Below are positions 29,595 through 41,022 of a stretch of 64,000 nucleotides of DNA, piece by piece (the stretch's first letter is position 1; each line of letters opens with the position of its first letter). The stretch covers positions 806,001 through 870,000 of the forward strand of contig NZ_CP061274.1 in NCBI RefSeq assembly GCF_014775655.1, written 5' to 3'. The notes beneath the pieces are model-generated. The model made no database searches. It saw only the letters and a list, made by a program, of their open reading frames with translations, and was not told where the DNA came from. The stretch comes from Clavibacter zhangzhiyongii. GTDB taxonomy: Bacteria; Actinomycetota; Actinomycetes; Actinomycetales; Microbacteriaceae. The translations under genes were made by a program, and so were the position numbers.

Positions 29595-29681
29595 GGGATC
29601 CACGGTACGCGCGGTTCGTGACCGGCTCCTGGGCGAGGCGGCACCGACCGGTGCGCCTCCCGCGTCGGGTACACTCGGTGT

Positions 29682-29779
29682 CGGCTCCTCGCGTGGTGCC
29701 ATCCAGGTGAACTCCCCCAGGGCGGAGACGCAGCAAGGGCAGCCGGGCTCTGGCAGGTGCGCGAGGGGTCTTCTCTTTT
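29682..29779 (+). ncRNA. ffs: signal recognition particle RNA (4.5S type)
   Basis: Small bacterial SRP RNA. The conserved core AGGTGAACTCCCCCAGGGC ... GCAGCAAGGG is present with a GNRA-type GAGA tetraloop; the ends CCTCGCG (29687-29693) and CGCGAGG (29760-29766) pair to close the hairpin. A -10 box TACACT at 29670-29675 fits a start near 29682, and a T-rich run TTCTCTTTTT ends the gene at about 29780. It binds Ffh to target membrane and secreted proteins. Ends are approximate by a few nt. Confidence 0.9.
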
Positions 29780-31997: not shown

Positions 31998-32068
31998 GCC
32001 CGTCGCGTCCGTCCTCGTCCGTCCGCTCGCCGTCCGTCCCGTCCGCCGCACCCGTCAGGAGCCCGCCC

Positions 32069-33259
32069 GTGCCCGTCGTCCTCGTCGTCAACTCCGGATC
32101 GTCGTCCTTCAAGTACCAGCTCGTCGAGATGGAGACCGAGACCGTGCTCGCCTCCGGGCTCGTGGAGCGCATCGGGGAGGCGACCGGATCCACGCGCCAC
32201 ACGGCGGGCGGCGACTCGTCGGTCCGCGAGCTGCCCATCGCCGACCACACGGCCGGGTTCCAGGCGATGCTCGACGCGTTCGCCGAGCACGGGCCCTCGC
32301 TCGAGGAGGGGCCGCCCGTCGCGGTCGGCCACCGCGTGGTGCACGGCGGTGACGTCTTCGTGGAGCCCACCGTGGTCACCGACCGGGTGAAGGCCGACAT
32401 CGACGACCTCTCCGCGCTCGCGCCGCTGCACAACCCCGGCGCGCTGCAGGGGATCGAGGCGGCGCAGACCGCGTTCCCGGACGTGCCGCACGTGGCCGTC
32501 TTCGACACCGCGTTCCACCAGACGCTGCCGGCCGAGGCGTACACGTACGCGATCGACCGGGAGCTGGCGGCCGCGCACCGCATCCGCCGCTACGGCTTCC
32601 ACGGCACGAGCCACAAGTACGTGTCCGAGGCCGCCGCGCGGCTGCTCGGGAAGCCGCTCGAGGAGACGCGGATCATCGTGCTGCACCTCGGCAACGGGGC
32701 GTCGGCCGCGGCCGTGCAGGGCGGGCGCTCCATCGACACGTCCATGGGCCTCACGCCGCTCGAGGGCCTCGTGATGGGGACCCGCTCGGGCGACATCGAC
32801 CCGGCGATCCTCTTCCACCTCGCCCGGCACACCGACCTCGGGCTCGACGAGCTCGAGACGCTGCTCAACCGTCGGAGCGGGCTCCTCGGCCTCACCGGGC
32901 TGGGTGACATGCGCGACGTGCAGCGCGCCGCGGCCGACGGCGACGAGGCCGCGCAGACGGCGCTCGGCGTGTACCGGCACCGCATCCGCCACTACGTCGG
33001 CGCGTACGCGGCGCAGCTCGGCGGCGTCGACGCGGTCGTGTTCACCGCGGGCGTGGGCGAGAACAACCCGCTCGTGCGCCGCCGGTCGCTCGCCGGGCTC
33101 GAGTTCATGGGCATCGGCATCGACGACGACCGCAACGAGCTCATCAGCTCCGAGGCGCGATTCGTGAGCCCCGAGGGGTCGCCCGTCGCCGTGCTCGTGA
33201 TCCCCACCGACGAGGAGCTCGAGATCGCGCGCCAGTCGCTCGCGGCCACCGGGAGCTGA
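32069..33259 (+). CDS. ackA: acetate kinase
   Basis: A 396-residue kinase making ATP and acetate from acetyl phosphate, partner of Pta. Motifs in order: VLVVNSGSSSFKYQLVE, VGHRVVHGGDVF, VAVFDTAFHQTLP with the catalytic arginine region RRYGFHGTSHKYV, and VLHLGNGASAAAV. GTG start with CAGGA 10 nt upstream; the frame is open far upstream only as a shadow of pta. Ends before a strong terminator. Confidence 0.95.
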   Translation: MPVVLVVNSGSSSFKYQLVEMETETVLASGLVERIGEATGSTRHTAGGDSSVRELPIADHTAGFQAMLDAFAEHGPSLEEGPPVAVGHRVVHGGDVFVEPTVVTDRVKADIDDLSALAPLHNPGALQGIEAAQTAFPDVPHVAVFDTAFHQTLPAEAYTYAIDRELAAAHRIRRYGFHGTSHKYVSEAAARLLGKPLEETRIIVLHLGNGASAAAVQGGRSIDTSMGLTPLEGLVMGTRSGDIDPAILFHLARHTDLGLDELETLLNRRSGLLGLTGLGDMRDVQRAAADGDEAAQTALGVYRHRIRHYVGAYAAQLGGVDAVVFTAGVGENNPLVRRRSLAGLEFMGIGIDDDRNELISSEARFVSPEGSPVAVLVIPTDEELEIARQSLAATGS

Positions 33260-33275
33260 GCCGGACCATCCGCTC

Positions 33276-33312
33276 GAGAGGCCCGCGATCCACGCCGGAT
33301 CGCGGGCCTCTC
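33276..33312 (+). terminator. terminator of pta-ackA
   Basis: A 16-bp perfect stem (GAGAGGCCCGCGATCC, loop ACGCC) 16 nt after the ackA stop. Confidence 0.8.
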
Positions 33313-33530
33313 CTCGTCGTGCCCGAGACGCCCGCCCGCCCTCGCGCCACGGGGATGACCACTGGGCCCGCTACCTAGACGGCATCCGCACCGGACCAGT
33401 GGCGCGCAGTGTTGTCGGCCCCGCGACCGGATGCGAGCCTCAGACGACCGTGCGAGTGGTGGGGGCCGCCCCGCGGGATGCACGGCCGCGCCCACGATCG
33501 CGGCCGGCCACGCAATCGAGGGGAACGCAC

Positions 33531-36500
33531 ATGGCTCTACACATGCCCAGGCGCAGAGGCAGCCTGGCGACCGCGACGGCCTTCGGGCTCGCCGCGGCGA
33601 TCGTCGCGTTCGGGGGCACCGCGCCCGCGAACGCCGCACCGGGGGACACGGCGGAGGCCGAGGGCCGACTGCTCACGCTGTCCGGCACCCCCGACCTGTC
33701 GGACCTGGTGGCGCTGTCCGGCGCCTACACCGGGTTCGCGCCGGGCGAGCCCGACCCGCAGCTGGACCGCAGCGCCATCGACGCCAGCGTGCTCGGCGGC
33801 GTGCTGGACGCGCAGATCGCGGCCGGCGTCCAGCTGGGCGACATCCTCACCCTCGACCGGGCGGTCGCGGCCGGCGCGGTCGACCAGTTCGCCTCGGCGG
33901 GCAGCGCGGGCGCCACCGGATCCGCGGGCCTGCTCGACGGCGACGGCGGAATCGTGGTGAACGACGGCACGGGCGACGAGGTCACGCTCGACCTGACGCC
34001 GCTCCTGGCGACCGCGGGCGCGAGCGGGGAGATCTCCGACCTCTCGCTCCAGCTCGGGGTCCTCTCGGCGACCGCCACCGACCCCGGCACCGGTCCTGTC
34101 GTCTCCGACTACCGGATCGCATCCGCGGACGCTGACATCAGCAGCCCGCTCGTCGGCGACGTCGCGACCGGCGTCGAAGCCGCGGTAGCCGCCCTCGCAT
34201 CCGACATCGACGCGCAGATCGCGCTCGGCGCCGACGTCGACGGCCTCCTCACCGGCGTCATCGACGGACTCCTCGCGGGCGTCATCTCGGTCGGCACGCC
34301 CACCGGTGACATCCGCCTCACCGTGAACACGACCCAGGCGGTGAACGCGGTCCTCACGCAGCCCCTGACCAGCGGCGGTGTCACCATCGACCTCGCCGCC
34401 GGCACGGTCACGGTCGACATCGACGAGCTCGTCGCGCTCAACGACCTCCCCGCGAACACGCAGATCCTCGACGCGGACGTCATCGCCGGCCTGGTGCAGG
34501 AGATCCTGACGGACGCCCTGCCCGCCGTGGTCCTGGAAGCCGTCCTCGACTCCACCCGCGTCCTCGTCACCGTGGACGCCGGGGTGTCGCTCCTCCCGAT
34601 CGTCGGGAGCGGCGTCCCCCTCGGGGCGGTGTCCGTCGACATCGACACGACGCTCGCGAACCTGCTCAACCCCACGGGTCCCGGGAACTCGGCGCCTCAG
34701 CTCGTCATCGGCACCACGGTGGCCGGGCTCGACGTCGACGACCTGGCCCAGCCTCTCGTCGACGGCCTCCTCCCCTCCCTCCGCACCTCGATCGGCGACG
34801 TCCTCACGCTCTCCGACGTCACCGCGCTCACCACGCCCCTGATCGGATCGCTGGATCCCGTCTTCGACGTGCTCGGGGACGTCGTGCAGCTGACCGCCAA
34901 CGTGCAGGACGGCTCCGGGTTCGTCGACCCGGCCGGAGCTGCCCCCGGCACCGACACCTTCACGGTCACGGCCCTCCGCGTCGCTCTCCTGCCCGGCACC
35001 GGCCCGACCCTCGACCTCGCGTCGGCCACGGTCCGCGCGGTCGCGATCCCCACGGCCACGCCGGTGCTGATCACGTCCCCCACCCCGGGCCAGGTCATCG
35101 ACCTCGCGGCCGGGCAGTCGACGGTCGTCGTGCCGATCGTCGGGACGGCCGACCCGGACGGCTCGGTCACGCTGACGCTGGACGGCCAGACCGTCGGACC
35201 CGTCGAGATCGGACCGGACGGCCGGTTCACGCTGACGCCCGGCGCGCTCCCCGCGGGCACCTACACGGCGACGGTCACGCAGACCGTCCCCGGTGAGCTC
35301 GCCGGAGCACCTGCCACGGTGACCTTCACGATCGCCCCCGCGGCGACCGACATCACCATCACGACGCCGACGCCCGGTCAGATCTTCCTGACCACGCCGG
35401 CGGACCCGACCGTCGACGTGCCGGTGGAAGGCGCGGCGGACACCGAGGCCACGGTCACCGTGACCATCGACGGACAGGACCCCCGGACCGACGTCGTCGG
35501 CGCGGACGGCCGCTACGCCGTCTCCTTCGCCGACCTGCCGGTCGGCACGTACACCGCGACCGCGACCCAGTCGATCGACGGCATCGTCCGCGGCACCGAG
35601 ACGGTCACCTTCACGGTGGGCGCCCCGGCGGAGGCGATCACGATCGACTCGCCGACCGACGGACAGGAGATCCCGAGCAGCGGGACCGGGCCGAACCCGA
35701 CCGCTGACGTCCCCGTGACCGGAACCGCGGACCCCCGCGCCTCCGTGACGGTGACGGTCCCGGGTCGTGCGTCGCAGACCGACGCGACCGTCACGGACGG
35801 CCGCTTCGACGTCCTGTTCCCGAACCTCCCCGTGGGCCTCTACACCGCCACGGCGACGCAGACGATCGGCGGTGTCGTGGTCGGCACGGACCAGGTCGCC
35901 TTCGAGGTGGGCGCGCCCGCAGAGGACGTGGTCATCGACACGCCGGACGACGGACAGACGTTCACGATCCCGGCGGGCGGCACCACGACCGACGTGATCG
36001 TGAACGGCAGCGCCGACCCCCGCGCCACGGTGGTCATCTCGCTCCCGGGACGCGATGACGTGACGCAGGTCGTCGGCGAGGACGGTCGCTTTGAGACCAC
36101 CTTCACCGGCCTCCCGGCCACGTCGTACGAGGTGACCGTCACGCAGTCCATCGACGGCGCACCCGCCGGCTCGGACACCGCGGCCTTCACCGTCGAGATC
36201 GCCGGGATCGAGCAGGTCGTCATCGAGACGCCGGAGGACGGGGACTTCATCCCGCTGCCCGCCGGCGACACGACGATCGTCGTCCCCTTCACGGGCACGG
36301 CCGACCCGGCCGCGACGGTGACCTTGACCGTCGGCGGCACCACGACGGGCCCGGTGGAGGTGGACGACGACGGCGGCTTCACCCTGACGCCGCCCGCCCT
36401 GCCGGCCGGTGCCTACACGGGCACCGTCACCCAGACCATCGGCGGTCAGCCTGTGGGATCCGAGACGGTGACCTTCACGATCGGCGTGCCGGTGACCATC

Positions 36501-38645
36501 ACGGAGCCGACCGTCGGTCAGGTCTACACGCTGCCCACCGGCGAGACCGGGGTCGACGTGGTCGTCTCCGGCCGGGCCGACCCGATCGGCACCGTCACGG
36601 TGACGATCACCGGTCGCACCCCGGTCGAGGTCGAGGTCGGTGATGACGGCACGTACAGCACCACCTTCACGGGCGTGCCGGAGGGGTCCTTCACGGCCAC
36701 CGTCACCCAGGAGATCGGTGGAGCTGCCGCTGGGTCGGCCGGCCCGGTGCAGTTCACCGTGACCGCCGGCACCGCTGACGCGGGCGCCGACGGCACCGCC
36801 GGTACGGACGCGGCTGGTACGGACGCGGCCGGGACTGACGCGGCTGGTACGGATGCTGCTGGAACTGACGCGGCTGGTACGGACGCGGCTGGTACGGACG
36901 CTGCTGGGACCGACGCGGCTGGAACGGACGCGGCTGGAACGGACGCTGCTGGGACGGACGCTGCTGGGACGGACGCTGCTGGGACCGACGCTGCCGGGAC
37001 CGATGCTGCTGGAACCGATGCTGCCGGAACCGATGCTGCCGGTACGGATGCGGCTGGTACGGACGCTGCCGGAACGGACGCGGCTGGAACCGACGCTGCC
37101 GGGACCGACGCTGCTGGTACGGACGCTGCCGGTACGGACGCGGCTGGTACGGATGCGGCTGGAACCGACGCTGCCGGAACGGATGCAGCTGGAACCGACG
37201 CTGCGGGTACGGACGCTGCTGGTACGGACGCGGCTGGTACGGACGCTGCCGGGACGGACGCCGCTGGAACCGACGCGGCTGGTACGGATGCTGCCGGGAC
37301 TGACGCTGCCGGGACGGACGCGGCCGGAACTGACGCGGCTGGTACGGATGCGGCTGGTACGGATGCGGCTGGAACCGACGCTGCCGGGACGGACGCTGCC
37401 GGGACGGACGCGGCTGGTACGGACGCGGCTGGTACGGACGCGGCTGGTACGGACGCGGCTGGTACGGACGCGGCTGGAACCGACGCTGCCGGAACCGACG
37501 CGGCTGGGACTGACGCTGCCGGGACGGATGCGGCTGGGACCGACGCTGCCGGTACGGACGCGGCTGGGACTGACGCGGCTGGTACGGATGCGGCTGGTAC
37601 GGATGCGGCTGGTACGGATGCGGCTGGTACGGATGCGGCTGGTACGGATGCGGCTGGTACGGACGCGGCTGGTACGGATGCGGCTGGTACGGACGCGGCT
37701 GGTACGGACGCGGCTGGTACGGACGCGGCTGGAACCGACGCTGCCGGAACCGACGCGGCTGGTACGGACGCGGCTGGTACGGATGCGGCTGGTACGGACG
37801 CTGCCGGGACGGACGCGGCTGGTACGGACGCTGCCGGGACGGACGCGGCTGGAACCGACGCTGCCGGAACCGACGCGGCTGGCACTGACGCGGCTGGAAC
37901 CGACGCTGCCGGAAACGACGCTGCCGGGACGGACGCTGCTGGTACGGACGCGGCTGGAACCGATGCGGCTGGAACCGATGCGGCTGGTACGGACGCTGCC
38001 GGGACGGACGCGGCTGGCACTGATGCGGCTGGTACCGACGCTGCCGGGACGGACGCCGCTGGTACCGACGCTGCCGGAACGGACGCGGCTGGCACTGACG
38101 CGGCCGGTACCGACGCCGCCGGCGTCGACGCGACGGACGCCGCCGGCGCCGACGCGTCCGACGCCACCGACGGATCCACCGACGGCGCCGACACCCCCAC
38201 CCGGGCTGTCGTCCGCTTCACGGAGATCGTCCGAGGGAACGGCTCGATGCAGATGGTCGACGCCGTCGGCTTCATCCCCGGTGAGACGATCAACGCGACG
38301 GTGTTCTCCACGCCGAAGCCGCTCGCGCCGATGGTCGCGGACGCCGAGGGACGCGCGACGTTCGTCTTCGAGATCGGTCCGGACTTCGAGCTCGGCGACC
38401 ACACGGTCGACGTGATCGGGGTCGACTCCGGCATGGCGGACGAGATGATCACGCGGTTCCGGGTCGTGGGATCCACCGTCCCTGCGGGCCAGCCCGGCAC
38501 GCCGATCAGCGGCGGCTACGGCGGCGGCATCCTCCCGATCACGGGCGGCGACGGTGACGGGATGCTGCTGCTCGGCGGCATCGCGCTCCTGATGATGCTG
38601 ACCGGCGCCGGTGCCCTGCACCGCGGCCGCAGCCGTCGGGTGTGA
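33531..38645 (+). CDS. giant sortase-type surface protein with (TDAAG)88 stalk
   Basis: A 1704-residue secreted protein. Signal peptide at residues 1-32 (cleavage near NAA|PGD); an N-terminal domain of about 480 residues resembling 'choice-of-anchor G' proteins; six Ig-like repeats of about 95 residues starting near 512, 607, 702, 799, 894 and 987, each ending in TYTATVTQ and TVTFTIG-type strands; 88 tandem pentapeptides at 1092-1531; a C-terminal domain of about 135 residues; then LPITGG (1668-1673), a membrane helix and the basic tail RGRSRRV. ATG with GAGGGGA 7 nt upstream. The pentapeptide block adds one Asp per unit and has no Pro or aromatic residues. Likely a wall-attached stalk that displays the N-terminal domains; the binding partner is unknown. 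Confidence 0.9.
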   Translation: MALHMPRRRGSLATATAFGLAAAIVAFGGTAPANAAPGDTAEAEGRLLTLSGTPDLSDLVALSGAYTGFAPGEPDPQLDRSAIDASVLGGVLDAQIAAGVQLGDILTLDRAVAAGAVDQFASAGSAGATGSAGLLDGDGGIVVNDGTGDEVTLDLTPLLATAGASGEISDLSLQLGVLSATATDPGTGPVVSDYRIASADADISSPLVGDVATGVEAAVAALASDIDAQIALGADVDGLLTGVIDGLLAGVISVGTPTGDIRLTVNTTQAVNAVLTQPLTSGGVTIDLAAGTVTVDIDELVALNDLPANTQILDADVIAGLVQEILTDALPAVVLEAVLDSTRVLVTVDAGVSLLPIVGSGVPLGAVSVDIDTTLANLLNPTGPGNSAPQLVIGTTVAGLDVDDLAQPLVDGLLPSLRTSIGDVLTLSDVTALTTPLIGSLDPVFDVLGDVVQLTANVQDGSGFVDPAGAAPGTDTFTVTALRVALLPGTGPTLDLASATVRAVAIPTATPVLITSPTPGQVIDLAAGQSTVVVPIVGTADPDGSVTLTLDGQTVGPVEIGPDGRFTLTPGALPAGTYTATVTQTVPGELAGAPATVTFTIAPAATDITITTPTPGQIFLTTPADPTVDVPVEGAADTEATVTVTIDGQDPRTDVVGADGRYAVSFADLPVGTYTATATQSIDGIVRGTETVTFTVGAPAEAITIDSPTDGQEIPSSGTGPNPTADVPVTGTADPRASVTVTVPGRASQTDATVTDGRFDVLFPNLPVGLYTATATQTIGGVVVGTDQVAFEVGAPAEDVVIDTPDDGQTFTIPAGGTTTDVIVNGSADPRATVVISLPGRDDVTQVVGEDGRFETTFTGLPATSYEVTVTQSIDGAPAGSDTAAFTVEIAGIEQVVIETPEDGDFIPLPAGDTTIVVPFTGTADPAATVTLTVGGTTTGPVEVDDDGGFTLTPPALPAGAYTGTVTQTIGGQPVGSETVTFTIGVPVTITEPTVGQVYTLPTGETGVDVVVSGRADPIGTVTVTITGRTPVEVEVGDDGTYSTTFTGVPEGSFTATVTQEIGGAAAGSAGPVQFTVTAGTADAGADGTAGTDAAGTDAAGTDAAGTDAAGTDAAGTDAAGTDAAGTDAAGTDAAGTDAAGTDAAGTDAAGTDAAGTDAAGTDAAGTDAAGTDAAGTDAAGTDAAGTDAAGTDAAGTDAAGTDAAGTDAAGTDAAGTDAAGTDAAGTDAAGTDAAGTDAAGTDAAGTDAAGTDAAGTDAAGTDAAGTDAAGTDAAGTDAAGTDAAGTDAAGTDAAGTDAAGTDAAGTDAAGTDAAGTDAAGTDAAGTDAAGTDAAGTDAAGTDAAGTDAAGTDAAGTDAAGTDAAGTDAAGTDAAGTDAAGTDAAGTDAAGTDAAGTDAAGTDAAGTDAAGTDAAGTDAAGTDAAGTDAAGTDAAGTDAAGTDAAGTDAAGTDAAGTDAAGNDAAGTDAAGTDAAGTDAAGTDAAGTDAAGTDAAGTDAAGTDAAGTDAAGTDAAGTDAAGTDAAGTDAAGVDATDAAGADASDATDGSTDGADTPTRAVVRFTEIVRGNGSMQMVDAVGFIPGETINATVFSTPKPLAPMVADAEGRATFVFEIGPDFELGDHTVDVIGVDSGMADEMITRFRVVGSTVPAGQPGTPISGGYGGGILPITGGDGDGMLLLGGIALLMMLTGAGALHRGRSRRV
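36804..38123 (+). repeat. 88-copy 15-bp tandem repeat encoding TDAAG
   Basis: Exactly 1320 bp, that is 88 units of 15 bp with no frame break. All but one encode Thr-Asp-Ala-Ala-Gly (one has Asn for Thr, near 37913). Codons vary at third positions (ACG/ACC/ACT, GAC/GAT, GGT/GGA/GGG/GGC), but blocks of identical units occur, for example the GGTACGGATGCGGCT run around 37585-37665 and the GGTACGGACGCGGCT run around 37410-37470. Such blocks indicate recent slippage or unequal exchange. Confidence 0.97.
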
Positions 38646-38670
38646 TGCCCCGGCACTGAGCAGAGAGGGG

Positions 38671-38703
38671 CGGGCGGCCCGGCAGACGATGCCGGGCCGC
38701 CCG
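38671..38703 (+). terminator. terminator of the giant surface protein gene
   Basis: A 13-bp stem (CGGGCGGCCCGGC, loop AGACGAT) 25 nt after the stop codon. Confidence 0.75.
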
Positions 38704-38788
38704 TCCCGCTCGCACGATCCGCACGACCGCACGACCGCACGACCCGCACGACCCGAGACCCACCCGACGCACGAAGGGGACGGCGCAG

Positions 38789-39703
38789 ATGACCGACACG
38801 AAGCACGAGCACGGGGCCGAGGCGGATCTCGACGAGACCGCCGCGCCCATCGCCGGTTCCCCTTCGCAGGCGGATGCCGCGGACGAGCATCCCGACGAGC
38901 ACCAGACCGTCGGCCCGCACGATGCGCCGACGGCCCCCGCCTCCACGCCCCCCGGCCTCACCCGCGGCGCCCGCATCGGGTCGGCGGTGGCCGCCGCCGC
39001 CGTCGCGATCTACGTGGCCACCTCGATCCTCATGGTCGTGCCGCAGGGCGACGCGACCCGTGCCCTCACGGCCGCCGCACGTCCGTACTTCAGCCAGCAG
39101 TGGAACGTGTTCGCCCCGTCCATCCAGAAGACCAACCGCCACCTCGAGATGCAGGCGCAGTGGCGCGACGCGTCCGGCACCCTGGTCAAGAGCGACTGGG
39201 CCGACATCACCGGCGTCGAGTACGCCGCAGGGGAGGGGACGCTGCAGGGATCCCGCACGGTGAAGCAGAGCGCCAACCTGCTCAAGACGTACACCGAGCG
39301 GTTCCAGGCGCTCACGCCCGAGCAGAGGACCATCGTGCAGGACACTTTCATCCGCCGGGCGGACACCGACTCCGGCTTCGCCGCGAAGTCGGACACGTCC
39401 CTCATCGATCAGCTCACCGCGCTGGACGAGGGGAGCCAGGGGCGCGTCATCCGGCTGCTCCGCGCGGACTACGTGATGAAGGAGTTCACGACCTACTGGG
39501 CGACCGCCTGGTTCGGCCGCGACATCGAGCGCGTGCGCTGGCGGGTCGTGACCGACAGGCCCAACGACTTCGCGCACCGGGACGACGCCACGCAGCAGTT
39601 CACGCAGAACGTGCTCCCGTTCGGATGGCGGGAGGCGGACGACGTCGTCGATCCGCAGGCGCTCAGCGTCTACCAGGGAGTGATGGAGAGGTACGGGCGA
39701 TGA
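38789..39703 (+). CDS. DUF5819 family membrane protein, SdpA-like
   Basis: A 304-residue protein: an acidic, His/Asp/Pro-rich cytoplasmic N-terminus (about 60 residues), one membrane helix (VAAAAVAIYVATSILMVV) and an extracytoplasmic region beginning RPYFSQQWNVFAPSIQK, the DUF5819 signature. SdpA of the Bacillus sporulation-delaying-protein system has the same layout and a comparable aromatic W-FxxxP motif. ATG with GAAGGGG 9 nt upstream; the stop overlaps the HTTM gene start (ATGA), so both products are made together. Confidence 0.8.
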   Translation: MTDTKHEHGAEADLDETAAPIAGSPSQADAADEHPDEHQTVGPHDAPTAPASTPPGLTRGARIGSAVAAAAVAIYVATSILMVVPQGDATRALTAAARPYFSQQWNVFAPSIQKTNRHLEMQAQWRDASGTLVKSDWADITGVEYAAGEGTLQGSRTVKQSANLLKTYTERFQALTPEQRTIVQDTFIRRADTDSGFAAKSDTSLIDQLTALDEGSQGRVIRLLRADYVMKEFTTYWATAWFGRDIERVRWRVVTDRPNDFAHRDDATQQFTQNVLPFGWREADDVVDPQALSVYQGVMERYGR

Positions 39704-41022
39704 GCGCGCATCGGCACGAGTCCGCGCGGTCTGCGGCCGCAACCACCTCCGCGGAGCCGTCGAGCTCGGCCGCCTCCACGACGAAGCCGACGAAGCGGAC
39801 GAAGGCGCCCGAGGCGAAGGCTCCGGCCGCGGGATCCTGGACCGGTCGCCGCGCTCCCCGCACCGCGTCGTCGCGGCCACGCGGCCGCGGCGCGGGCCGG
39901 CTCTCCGGCGCCCGCGCCGCCCGCCTCCGCCAGATGCTCCAGGACCGCGAGCTCCTGACGGCCCTGAAGCACCCGCGCGACTGGCCGCGCGGCATCGCGA
40001 CGTGGATGACGGAGCGCGAGCACGCCACCTACAGCTTCGCGGCCTTCCGCATCACGATCGGCGCCGTGATCCTCATGGTGCTCGTGACGTGCTTCAGCGA
40101 CCGCCACTACCTCTGGGGCGTGGGCGCCCGCTTCATCGACCCCGAGTCCACGCGCCGCGGATGGCTGCCTGCGTTCACCGGCCTCTTCTCCAAGACCGAC
40201 GCGACGCTCTTCGACCTGACGTACCTCCTGCTCGTGGTCCTGGCCGCCCTGTTCACGCTCGGCTGGCGGACGCGCGTCGTGACCCCGTTCCTCCTCCTGC
40301 TCTGGGTCGGCCTGTCCACCAACAGCACGCTGCTCACCAACGGGGGCGACACCGTGCTGCGGCTCACGCTGTTCTTCGCGCTCTTCGCCGACCTGTCGCG
40401 GCACTTCTCGCTGGACGCCCTGCGGCGACGGCGGGCGCCGGTCGCGGCGGCGGGCGGGACGCCGGTCGGGCTCGCGCAGGTCGCCCGCGCGCAGGTCGAC
40501 CGCATCCCGCGACCGGTCCCCGTGCTCCTGCACAACACGGCGCTGGTGCTCTGCGCGTACCAGATCATGCTCGTGTACGTGAACTCGGCCATCCTCAAGC
40601 TGCAGGGTGCGGAGTGGCGCGACGGGACCGCGACGTACTACTCGCTCCTCCTCGAGGGCTACCGCCCCTGGCCGTGGATCAACGACCTCCTCGTGCAGTC
40701 GAGCCTCGGCATCGTGGTCGCGAGCTTCGTCGCCGTGGCCTTCCAGGGCCTCTTCCCGCTCCTCATCCTGTGGCGTCCCACGCGGATCGTCGCGCTCATC
40801 GCCATCACCGGGATGCACCTGATGATCGGGCTGCTGCTCGGACTCTGGCCGTTCTCCCTCGCGATGATCGCGCTCGACTTCCTCTTCATCCGCGACGCCA
40901 CCTGGCGCGAGGGGCTGGCGCTCCTCGGGCGGTGGAGCGCGGGCGCATCCGACCGGCTCGGGGCGGCGCACGCGCGCCGCTCCTCCCCGACGCCGGCAGC
41001 GGGGGTGCCGTCCGAGGTATGA
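39700..41022 (+). CDS. HTTM domain membrane protein, SdpB-like
   Basis: A 440-residue protein with a basic, Ala/Ser/Thr-rich tail of about 85 residues, then an HTTM (horizontally transferred transmembrane) domain with about 7 helices: SFAAFRITIGAVILMVLVTC, TYLLLVVLAALFTLGW, LCAYQIMLVYVNSAILKLQG (the conserved Y-hydrophobic-K segment) and the final FSLAMIALDFLFI. HTTM includes vitamin-K-dependent carboxylase N-termini and SdpB, a membrane factor that matures SdpC toxin. No carboxylase domain follows here, so it is closer to SdpB in size. The ATG overlaps the upstream stop. Its stop overlaps an in-frame ATG of dnaX. Confidence 0.85.
   Translation: MSAHRHESARSAAATTSAEPSSSAASTTKPTKRTKAPEAKAPAAGSWTGRRAPRTASSRPRGRGAGRLSGARAARLRQMLQDRELLTALKHPRDWPRGIATWMTEREHATYSFAAFRITIGAVILMVLVTCFSDRHYLWGVGARFIDPESTRRGWLPAFTGLFSKTDATLFDLTYLLLVVLAALFTLGWRTRVVTPFLLLLWVGLSTNSTLLTNGGDTVLRLTLFFALFADLSRHFSLDALRRRRAPVAAAGGTPVGLAQVARAQVDRIPRPVPVLLHNTALVLCAYQIMLVYVNSAILKLQGAEWRDGTATYYSLLLEGYRPWPWINDLLVQSSLGIVVASFVAVAFQGLFPLLILWRPTRIVALIAITGMHLMIGLLLGLWPFSLAMIALDFLFIRDATWREGLALLGRWSAGASDRLGAAHARRSSPTPAAGVPSEV

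What the first reader, a model, noticed from the sequence alone, without database searches (positions are those of the whole stretch)
33531..38645. A 1704-residue surface protein with 88 uninterrupted TDAAG repeats
One quarter of the protein (440 residues) is a single pentapeptide repeated 88 times with only one substitution (Asn for Thr). It sits between Ig-like repeats and a sortase-type anchor, the position of a stalk. Each unit adds an Asp, so the stalk carries about 88 negative charges, with a Thr every fifth residue that could be glycosylated. I know of no described structure for (TDAAG)n. Possible roles: a spacer that pushes the N-terminal domains away from the wall, an ion-binding or hydrating layer, or a ligand for host surfaces.
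Basis: partly seen in the sequence, partly recalled or inferred. Interest (0 to 1): 0.85.

Follow-up and report, generated by a model that had tools for sequence, protein, structure and literature searches.

The report
Acidic bacterial stalk beside HTTM genes
A wall-anchored surface protein of a Clavibacter bacterium carries an 88-unit acidic repeat stalk whose repeat type varies between species together with two neighbouring genes, one related to the human vitamin K-dependent carboxylase, which suggests those two genes serve the stalk.

Summary
Observation confirmed: 33531-38645 encodes 1704 residues with 88 in-register units (87 TDAAG, one NDAAG). It is neither chance nor artefact: 40 DNA spellings, almost no amino-acid change (pN/pS 0.006), and the gene occurs in 18 of 18 Clavibacter genomes searched, each with an Asp-rich stalk whose unit varies by species (5-mer, 8-mer, 3-mer, V/L-rich). 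New point: DUF5819 and HTTM (gamma-carboxylase-like) genes follow it. In Clavibacter their trees group by stalk type; upstream ackA does not, and the intervening C-terminal domain separates the two TDAAG species. In other Microbacteriaceae, 11 of 60 choice_anch_G loci examined have the pair, all 11 with a low-complexity stalk. The lysine aligned with GGCX Lys218 is Lys in 89 of 89 HTTM rows. Best reading: an extended acidic spacer matured or modified by a dedicated DUF5819-HTTM module; the spacer is likely, the module's role is inferred. Against: 26 of 88 HTTM loci show no such stalk nearby, 17 of the 62 stalks found are not acidic, and independent origins are not established.

The parts
33531..38645 (+). 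gene for the 1704-residue surface protein
   Evidence: orthologs in 18 of 18 Clavibacter genomes including its own
33531..33638 (+). signal peptide (residues 1-36), read by eye
   Evidence: sequence; similar start in orthologs; no signal predictor run
33645..34466 (+). choice-of-anchor G domain (residues 39-312)
   Evidence: NCBIfam NF033766 E 4.9e-56, 190.8 bits against cut-off 45
35037..36761 (+). Ig-like/prealbumin-like repeats of about 85 residues (by eye)
   Evidence: Pfam SpaA PF17802 at residues 657-705, 25.7 bits against 23.1; the other repeats by eye only
36804..38123 (+). 88-unit TDAAG array (stalk)
   Evidence: pN/pS 0.006
38196..38531 (+). wall-proximal C-terminal domain
   Evidence: alignment with three Clavibacter orthologs and a Goekera protein
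38532..38642 (+). wall-sorting signal: LPITGG, hydrophobic stretch, basic tail
   Evidence: sequence; two sortase genes in the genome
38789..39703 (+). DUF5819 protein, 304 aa
   Evidence: PF19136 E 8.3e-22
39700..41022 (+). HTTM protein, 440 aa from a start chosen by eye; that start overlaps the DUF5819 stop by 4 bases (ATGA)
   Evidence: PF05090 E 1.1e-9; TIGR04033 SdpB family E 3.1e-11 but below its cut-off; GGCX in PDB sequences E 2e-4; only PF05090 match in this genome
40597..40599 (+). codon of HTTM Lys300, aligned with GGCX Lys218
   Evidence: Lys in 89 of 89 HTTM rows; that Lys218 is the GGCX base is recalled
32063..33259 (+). ackA, upstream flank used as the linkage control (not part of the system)
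   Evidence: PF00871 E 9e-150; tree

Best explanation
The protein is exported, sortase-anchored and holds its choice_anch_G and Ig-like head away from the wall on a long, highly acidic, repeat-built stalk (TDAAG here; other Asp-rich units in sister species). Selection keeps the repeated amino-acid pattern within a species, while arrays are replaced by other Asp-spaced units between species. The two genes behind it, DUF5819 and HTTM, form a membrane module whose client is this class of low-complexity stalk protein; by analogy with SdpA/SdpB (processing of SdpC) and the gamma-carboxylase fold of HTTM, the module probably matures or chemically modifies the stalk. Shown here: anatomy, array selection, genus-wide presence, co-segregation of stalk type with DUF5819/HTTM alleles, conserved lysine. 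Inferred: spacer function, the client relation, and any chemistry.
For: Array purifying selection: pN/pS 0.006 (window) and 0.020 (L041); seven 8-mer arrays 0.03-0.30. 18 of 18 Clavibacter genomes, stalk Asp 20-37%. DUF5819 and HTTM lie in the same locus in 16 of 17 other Clavibacter loci holding the gene's start; the 17th, L057, ends at a contig end, and its other half L058 has the pair. DUF5819 and HTTM DNA trees: the 5-mer species (window, L041) 100/100 in both; the five VL-rich species 95/94 and 100/100; the ten others (nine 8-mer plus mixed L051) 100/99 in HTTM; ackA gives none of these groups. The C-terminal domain between stalk and DUF5819 puts the window inside the 8-mer species (100/98) with L041 outside (100/99). 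250-base tiles: window-L041 identity 95-97% in two of three DUF5819 tiles (others 73-87) and 89-92% in four tiles of the Ig repeats next to the stalk (others 69-83), but 76-82% in the C-terminal domain, where the 8-mer species have 86-93%. Other Microbacteriaceae: 11 of 60 choice_anch_G loci examined have the pair, all 11 with a low-complexity stalk. 87-row table: 39 both, 46 neither, 2 mismatches that are threshold or filter cases. All 8 PDB sequences that HTTM matches are gamma-carboxylase; Lys in 89 of 89.
Against: Of 88 HTTM loci, 26 have no low-complexity stalk within 3.2 kb: 12 of 19 outside the family and 14 of 52 in Microbacteriaceae outside Clavibacter (five of these 14, L237, L248, L250, L251, L252, are cut at a contig or locus end or masked). 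Among the 7 positives outside the family, L194 counts twice and in L189 the stretch lies in the DUF5819 frame itself. Random anchors give 15% (664 of 4415) by the same lenient filter. Of the 62 stalks found, 17 are not acidic, including (GTTTP)n and (GTATA)n, so no single residue is a universal target. On the HTTM tree, stalk class is clustered (22 changes, shuffled 36.8) but starred branches still force 9-11 changes per class, with long-branch warnings: outside Clavibacter the match of enzyme clade and stalk class is loose. The choice_anch_G tree needs 7 changes of the pair, but starred branches force only 1 and give 1 independent pair. Within Clavibacter the co-segregation is partly physical linkage; only the window/L041 C-terminal swap argues against pure linkage (n = 1), and the first DUF5819 tile (86% to L041, others 81-89) does not favour L041. 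HTTM is under the SdpB-family cut-off (43 against 178 bits) and DUF5819 hits no NCBIfam model.
Confidence: 0.5

Rival explanations
1. Plain spacer: a wall-anchored acidic stalk that only pushes the head outward, like staphylococcal SD repeats; DUF5819/HTTM are mere operon neighbours whose alleles travel with it by linkage.
For: Position between head and anchor; stalk length 193-1064 residues across species; pair and stalk gene are adjacent; few independent events.
Against: The swapped C-terminal domain between stalk and pair; choice_anch_G rows without such a stalk lack the pair in 46 of 47 (the 47th, L052, does have a stalk that my filter rejected); gene order differs (pair before the gene in L247, L256, L259).
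Confidence: 0.3
2. Ion-binding, hydrating or glycosylated brush: the stalk's function lies in its charges or in sugars on Thr, not in length.
For: Asp 20-37%, no Lys/Arg and 0-2 Glu in the stalks of 18 Clavibacter genomes; DxDxDG-like stretches in L051 and L056; a PF02366 protein in the genome.
Against: The TDAAG array lacks a DxDxDG site; T+S falls to 7-9% in six of 18 rows; neutral stalks occur beside the same gene pair elsewhere; PF02366 also rings in 8 of 14 control genomes.
Confidence: 0.14
3. Slippage by-product without function: a repeat that expanded neutrally.
For: Tandem 15-base units; a four-unit block repeated exactly (units 43-46 = 60-63).
Against: pN/pS 0.006 with 40 DNA spellings; little local similarity between neighbouring units (lag-1 z 1.6), so no recent expansion; Asp-rich stalk kept in 18 of 18 genomes.
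Confidence: 0.03
4. Codon-level effect only: the array's odd codons (GC3 0.60 against 0.94 in the rest) reflect selection on mRNA or DNA structure, and the peptide is secondary.
For: GC3 lower in the stalk in 20 of 20 rows; RNA folding weaker than gene-codon resamples in 35 of 37 segments, z of 2 or more in 27.
Against: Against synonymous permutation within the stretch, folding is stronger, not weaker, in 28 of 37, so codon order is not minimising structure; amino-acid constancy still needs protein-level selection.
Confidence: 0.03

Closest known systems
Staphylococcal Sdr proteins (ClfA, SdrC/D/E) with SD-repeat stalk and SdgA/SdgB
   Same: LPXTG-anchored, acidic low-complexity repeat between head and wall; 25-275 SD repeats; modifying-enzyme genes sdgA/sdgB adjacent to sdr genes (PMC3794999, abstract and passages seen)
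   Different: Unit TDAAG and other Asp units, not SD; head is choice_anch_G, not the ligand-binding A domain; neighbours are DUF5819/HTTM, not glycosyltransferases
Choice-of-anchor G family (NCBIfam NF033766)
   Same: N-terminal domain hit at 190.8 bits against cut-off 45
   Different: 49 of 60 family loci examined outside the Clavibacter stalk gene lack the gene pair and, with few exceptions, such a stalk; by eye they end in Ig/TIG-like repeats or a short tail
B. subtilis SdpA/SdpB with SdpC
   Same: HTTM-type membrane protein paired with a second protein beside a secreted client; SdpA and SdpB are required to process SdpC (PMC6818787, passages seen)
   Different: HTTM is under the SdpB model cut-off; DUF5819 hits no NCBIfam model; the client proposed here is a wall-anchored stalk protein, not a toxin precursor
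Vitamin K-dependent gamma-carboxylase (GGCX)
   Same: HTTM transmembrane domain; Lys aligned with Lys218
   Different: Only chain 86-286 of 696 aligns; similarity is weak (E 2e-4)
Periscope proteins
   Same: Length-variable repeat stalks on bacterial surface proteins (PMC9704523, passages seen)
   Different: Their repeats are individually folding domains forming rods; a 5-residue unit is not such a domain

Membership tests
Choice-of-anchor G family | NF033766 match above curated cut-off | tested here: met
   190.8 bits against 45
Sortase-anchored LPXTG proteins | signal peptide, LPXTG-like motif, hydrophobic stretch, basic tail, sortase in genome | tested here: met
   LPITGG...RSRRV at the C-terminus, signal peptide by eye; two sortase matches over cut-off; anchoring itself not tested
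Sdr (SD-repeat) family | serine-aspartate dipeptide stalk | tested here: not met
   unit is TDAAG
Sdr (SD-repeat) family | glycosyltransferases SdgA/SdgB next to the gene | tested here: not met
   the two downstream neighbours are DUF5819 and HTTM, the upstream one ackA
[quoted passage not shown]
   5-residue unit; Pfam and NCBIfam show no domain over the array
Periscope proteins | repeat number varies between strains of one species | not testable with these tools
   one genome per species held
Pentapeptide-repeat (Rfr-fold) proteins | A(D/N)LXX-type unit with central Leu/Phe (recalled) | tested here: not met
   the residue after Asp is Ala in all 88 units; no Pfam pentapeptide hit
SdpB family (TIGR04033), for HTTM | score above curated cut-off | tested here: not met
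   43.4 bits against 178.4
Gamma-carboxylase, for HTTM | Lys218 equivalent | tested here: met
   aligned Lys, 89 of 89 rows; its catalytic role is recalled
Gamma-carboxylase, for HTTM | region beyond the HTTM domain | tested here: not met
   440 aa only; alignment covers GGCX chain 86-286 of 696
Gamma-carboxylase, for HTTM | carboxylase activity | not testable with these tools
   needs an assay

The most novel reading that the evidence does not exclude
DUF5819 and HTTM form a bacterial, quinol-dependent (menaquinol) modification system of the gamma-carboxylase fold whose substrates are the low-complexity stalks of wall-anchored surface proteins; in Clavibacter each stalk repeat type is matched to its own enzyme allele, so the stalk would be a heavily modified biopolymer rather than a bare peptide.
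Probability: 0.15. Interest if true: 0.92.

Novelty: new variant of a known kind. Interest (0 to 1): 0.62.

Why it matters
Bacterial HTTM proteins are gamma-carboxylase relatives; for the linaridin clusters, one paper calls the exact mechanism unclear (PMC9927463, one passage seen). A co-varying client made of a few residues repeated hundreds of times would make that function directly testable by mass spectrometry. The stalk family is also a clean natural case in which a repeat region is rewritten between species while Asp-rich spacing is kept and, within a species, the exact peptide is held by selection.

Tried and rejected
Artefact: rejected (single contig; separate array in L041). Chance: rejected (synonymous-only variation). 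Antisense ORF 33537-38732: taken as a high-GC by-product, not followed. RNA element upstream: nothing at gathering level near the gene; two sub-threshold matches in 33200-33640 ignored. Sigma-70/terminator pattern scan of 33200-38900: none found. TDAAG elsewhere: 5 of the 16 non-Clavibacter loci have a frame with 4-6 occurrences of [TNASVG]DAAG (L005, L006, L008, L010, L011), otherwise unrelated. Carboxylation of Asp as the universal chemistry: not supported, because neutral stalks exist beside the pair. Family-wide independent origins: not shown. Structure of (TDAAG)n: not obtained.

Paper searches: 'choice-of-anchor G' 0 papers; 'choice-of-anchor' with Microbacteriaceae 0; DUF5819 in none of the 20 listed of 102 papers holding HTTM, SdpB or DUF5819 (the other 82 not seen). 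TDAAG itself was not searched in papers, so I make no claim that it is absent from print.

Rows and parts left out: of 75 choice_anch_G matches, three are Clavibacter stalk genes; I fetched 60 of the other 72, the 12 not fetched being among the weaker ones. by entropy alone: of the 49 loci without the pair, L102, L109, L121, L126 and L132 also have a 100-residue stretch under 2.72 bits (Gly/Pro tails in L102 and L109, Arg-rich frame in L126); 5 of 92 rows dropped (gene or flank cut off), and L102's Gly/Pro tail was set to 'no stalk' by my filter; one of 89 HTTM rows dropped (under 180 residues). DUF5819 hits G704, G580, G627 (one genus) and most sub-cut-off hits were not fetched. My own choice_anch_G profile missed L098 and L109. 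The 89 HTTM rows were gathered with a profile grown from the window's HTTM. Frames are stop to stop without a gene finder; 'dnaX' downstream is a label by eye, never scanned. The output was cut, so part of its rows (from L179 into L181) were not seen.

Full report
What is there. The gene 33531-38645 (+) encodes 1704 residues: signal peptide (by eye), choice-of-anchor G domain (NF033766, residues 39-312), Ig-like repeats (one SpaA hit above cut-off), 88 in-register [TN]DAAG units (residues 1092-1531), a C-terminal domain and an LPITGG sorting signal. The genome is a single 3,098,336-base contig with two sortase matches and one PF02366 match. The species is not known.

The array is real and selected. 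The 88 units have 40 DNA spellings; apart from one T-to-N change every difference is synonymous. Unit-to-unit pN/pS is 0.006 here, 0.020 in L041, and 0.03-0.30 in seven 8-mer arrays. Neighbouring units are barely more alike than shuffled ones (lag-1 z 1.6; longest exactly repeated block 4 units), so this is not a recent expansion. Codon use in the stalk is unusual: GC3 0.60 against 0.94 in the rest of the gene, and lower in the stalk in 20 of 20 rows from the genus. RNA folding of stalk segments is weaker than with the gene's ordinary codons in 35 of 37 segments (z of 2 or more in 27), but stronger than within-stretch synonymous permutation in 28 of 37. The cause of the codon shift is open.

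The unit is not conserved; an Asp-rich stalk is. All 18 Clavibacter genomes searched have the gene. At the same place, orthologs carry TDAAG (window, L041), TDATDAAG (nine loci), VDADGA plus 8-mers (L051), DAA/DGT 3-mers (L047) or V/L-rich Asp stretches (L046, L054-L058, five genomes); stalk lengths 193-1064 residues leaving out the two split genes' pieces; Asp 20-37%, Glu 0-2 residues, no Lys/Arg. The head is mosaic: the window's N-domain is 81% identical to L047, 67% to L043/L045/L051 and 42-49% to the rest, while eight loci form another type (84-92% to L050), and the V/L-rich species are 45-49% from both.

The neighbours. Behind the gene lie DUF5819 (PF19136) and an HTTM protein (PF05090) whose likely start overlaps the DUF5819 stop; it is the only PF05090 match in this genome. 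HTTM matches the SdpB model below cut-off, and all 8 PDB sequences it matches are gamma-carboxylase (E from 2e-4). Window Lys300 aligns with chain residue 187 of 9wfn, i.e. 218 by the 31-residue offset to the 758-residue chain; it is Lys in 89 of 89 HTTM rows gathered here. That Lys218 is the carboxylase base is recalled; the one GGCX review searched does not mention it.

Association. Of 72 choice_anch_G matches outside the Clavibacter stalk genes in 150 Microbacteriaceae genomes, 60 were examined. The pair is present in 11, and all 11 have low-complexity Ala/Asp/Glu/Ser-rich stalks. Among the 49 without it, only L132 (contig ends just after) has such a stalk; L102 and L109 have Gly/Pro tails, and L121 and L126 have other low-entropy stretches. 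A wider table of 93 choice_anch_G ORFs: in Clavibacter 16 stalk+pair and 1 cut off; outside it 22 stalk+pair, 34 neither, 5 pair without a 100-residue stalk (L142 99 and L194 90 residues; L248, L251, L252 cut off), 2 stalk without pair (L132; L102's tail), 13 neither but with short flanks. On the 87 rows used with the tree: 39 both, 46 neither, 1 and 1 mismatched; these are L052 (a real stalk that my text filter rejected) and L124 (97-residue Pro/Asp/Gly tail). Against independence: 7 changes of the pair on the best tree (shuffled mean 29), but starred branches force 1 and give 1 independent pair.

Reverse view. DUF5819 occurs in 63 of 398 Microbacteriaceae genomes and 20 of 396 across the phylum. 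In 60 fetched DUF5819 regions my profiles found HTTM in 60 and DUF5819 in 59. Of 88 HTTM loci, 45 have an acidic stalk within 3.2 kb, 17 a neutral one, 26 none; by group: Clavibacter 17 of 17, other Microbacteriaceae 38 of 52, other families 7 of 19 (L194 counted twice, L189's stretch inside the DUF5819 frame); random anchors give 15%. The 52 include the 11 loci found through choice_anch_G. On the HTTM tree stalk class is clustered but changes often (22 changes, shuffled 36.8; starred branches force 9-11 per class; long-branch warnings). Some stalk proteins beside the pair show no choice_anch_G domain by my profile (for example L195, (GTDNS)n), and gene order varies.

Co-segregation in Clavibacter. 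DUF5819 and HTTM trees recover the stalk classes (5-mer 100/100 in both; V/L-rich 95/94 and 100/100; the nine 8-mer loci plus L051 100/99 in HTTM, 97/97 without L042 in DUF5819), whereas ackA, immediately upstream, does not (L041 with L051+L045, L054 with L053). The C-terminal domain, between stalk and DUF5819, puts the window with the 8-mer species (100/98) and L041 outside (100/99). Tiles show the window most like L041 in four Ig-repeat tiles, two of three DUF5819 tiles and, alone or tied, five of six HTTM tiles; most like the 8-mer species in the C-terminal domain; most like L047 in the later N-domain tiles; and like every species in the first tiles downstream of HTTM. The first DUF5819 tile does not favour L041. 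So stalk and pair stayed matched through a swap of the piece between them. It is one event and needs more strains.

Mechanism. I commit to an extended acidic spacer, as with staphylococcal SD repeats (PMC3794999, abstract and passages), handled by a dedicated DUF5819-HTTM membrane module. SdpA and SdpB are required to process SdpC (PMC6818787, passages), and an HTTM protein is assumed to take part in linaridin maturation (PMC9927463, one passage). [quoted passage not shown] michiganensis (PMC10501053, passages, citing earlier work), so sortase-displayed proteins matter in this genus. The chemistry is unknown; carboxylation of Asp/Glu is possible only for the acidic stalks.

Verdict. Observation confirmed; interpretation partly supported. 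The array alone is a new member of a known kind of stalk; its coupling to DUF5819-HTTM is what makes it a new variant and worth testing.

Noticed in passing
window 36804-38123 and stalks of L041-L058: Stalk codons depart strongly from the gene's codon use (GC3 0.49-0.88 against 0.85-0.98, lower in the stalk in 20 of 20 rows), in arrays of different repeat type.
   Followed up: partly
window 33639-35036: The N-terminal domain exists in at least two types only 42-46% alike that are distributed among Clavibacter species without regard to stalk type or C-terminal domain, as in a surface protein under domain exchange.
   Followed up: partly
L126 (G001:C1:270500-284800): A second choice_anch_G gene in one Clavibacter genome without a stalk and without the DUF5819-HTTM pair.
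   Followed up: no
L194 (G378:C1:2492000-2509000): Two DUF5819-HTTM pairs, one on each side of a choice_anch_G gene with an Ala/Asp/Gln stalk, in a genome of another family.
   Followed up: no
L256 and L259: Pentapeptide arrays (GTTTP/GTTTA)n and (GTATA/GTATS)n in choice_anch_G genes placed after HTTM: neutral five-residue analogues of TDAAG.
   Followed up: no
L182, L184, L187: In large genomes of another family, some DUF5819-HTTM pairs follow an ORF with (TTTG)n, Asn/Thr/Gly or (SSG)n repeats; most pairs there have none.
   Followed up: partly
window 29680-29776: Bacterial small SRP RNA (RF00169).
   Followed up: no
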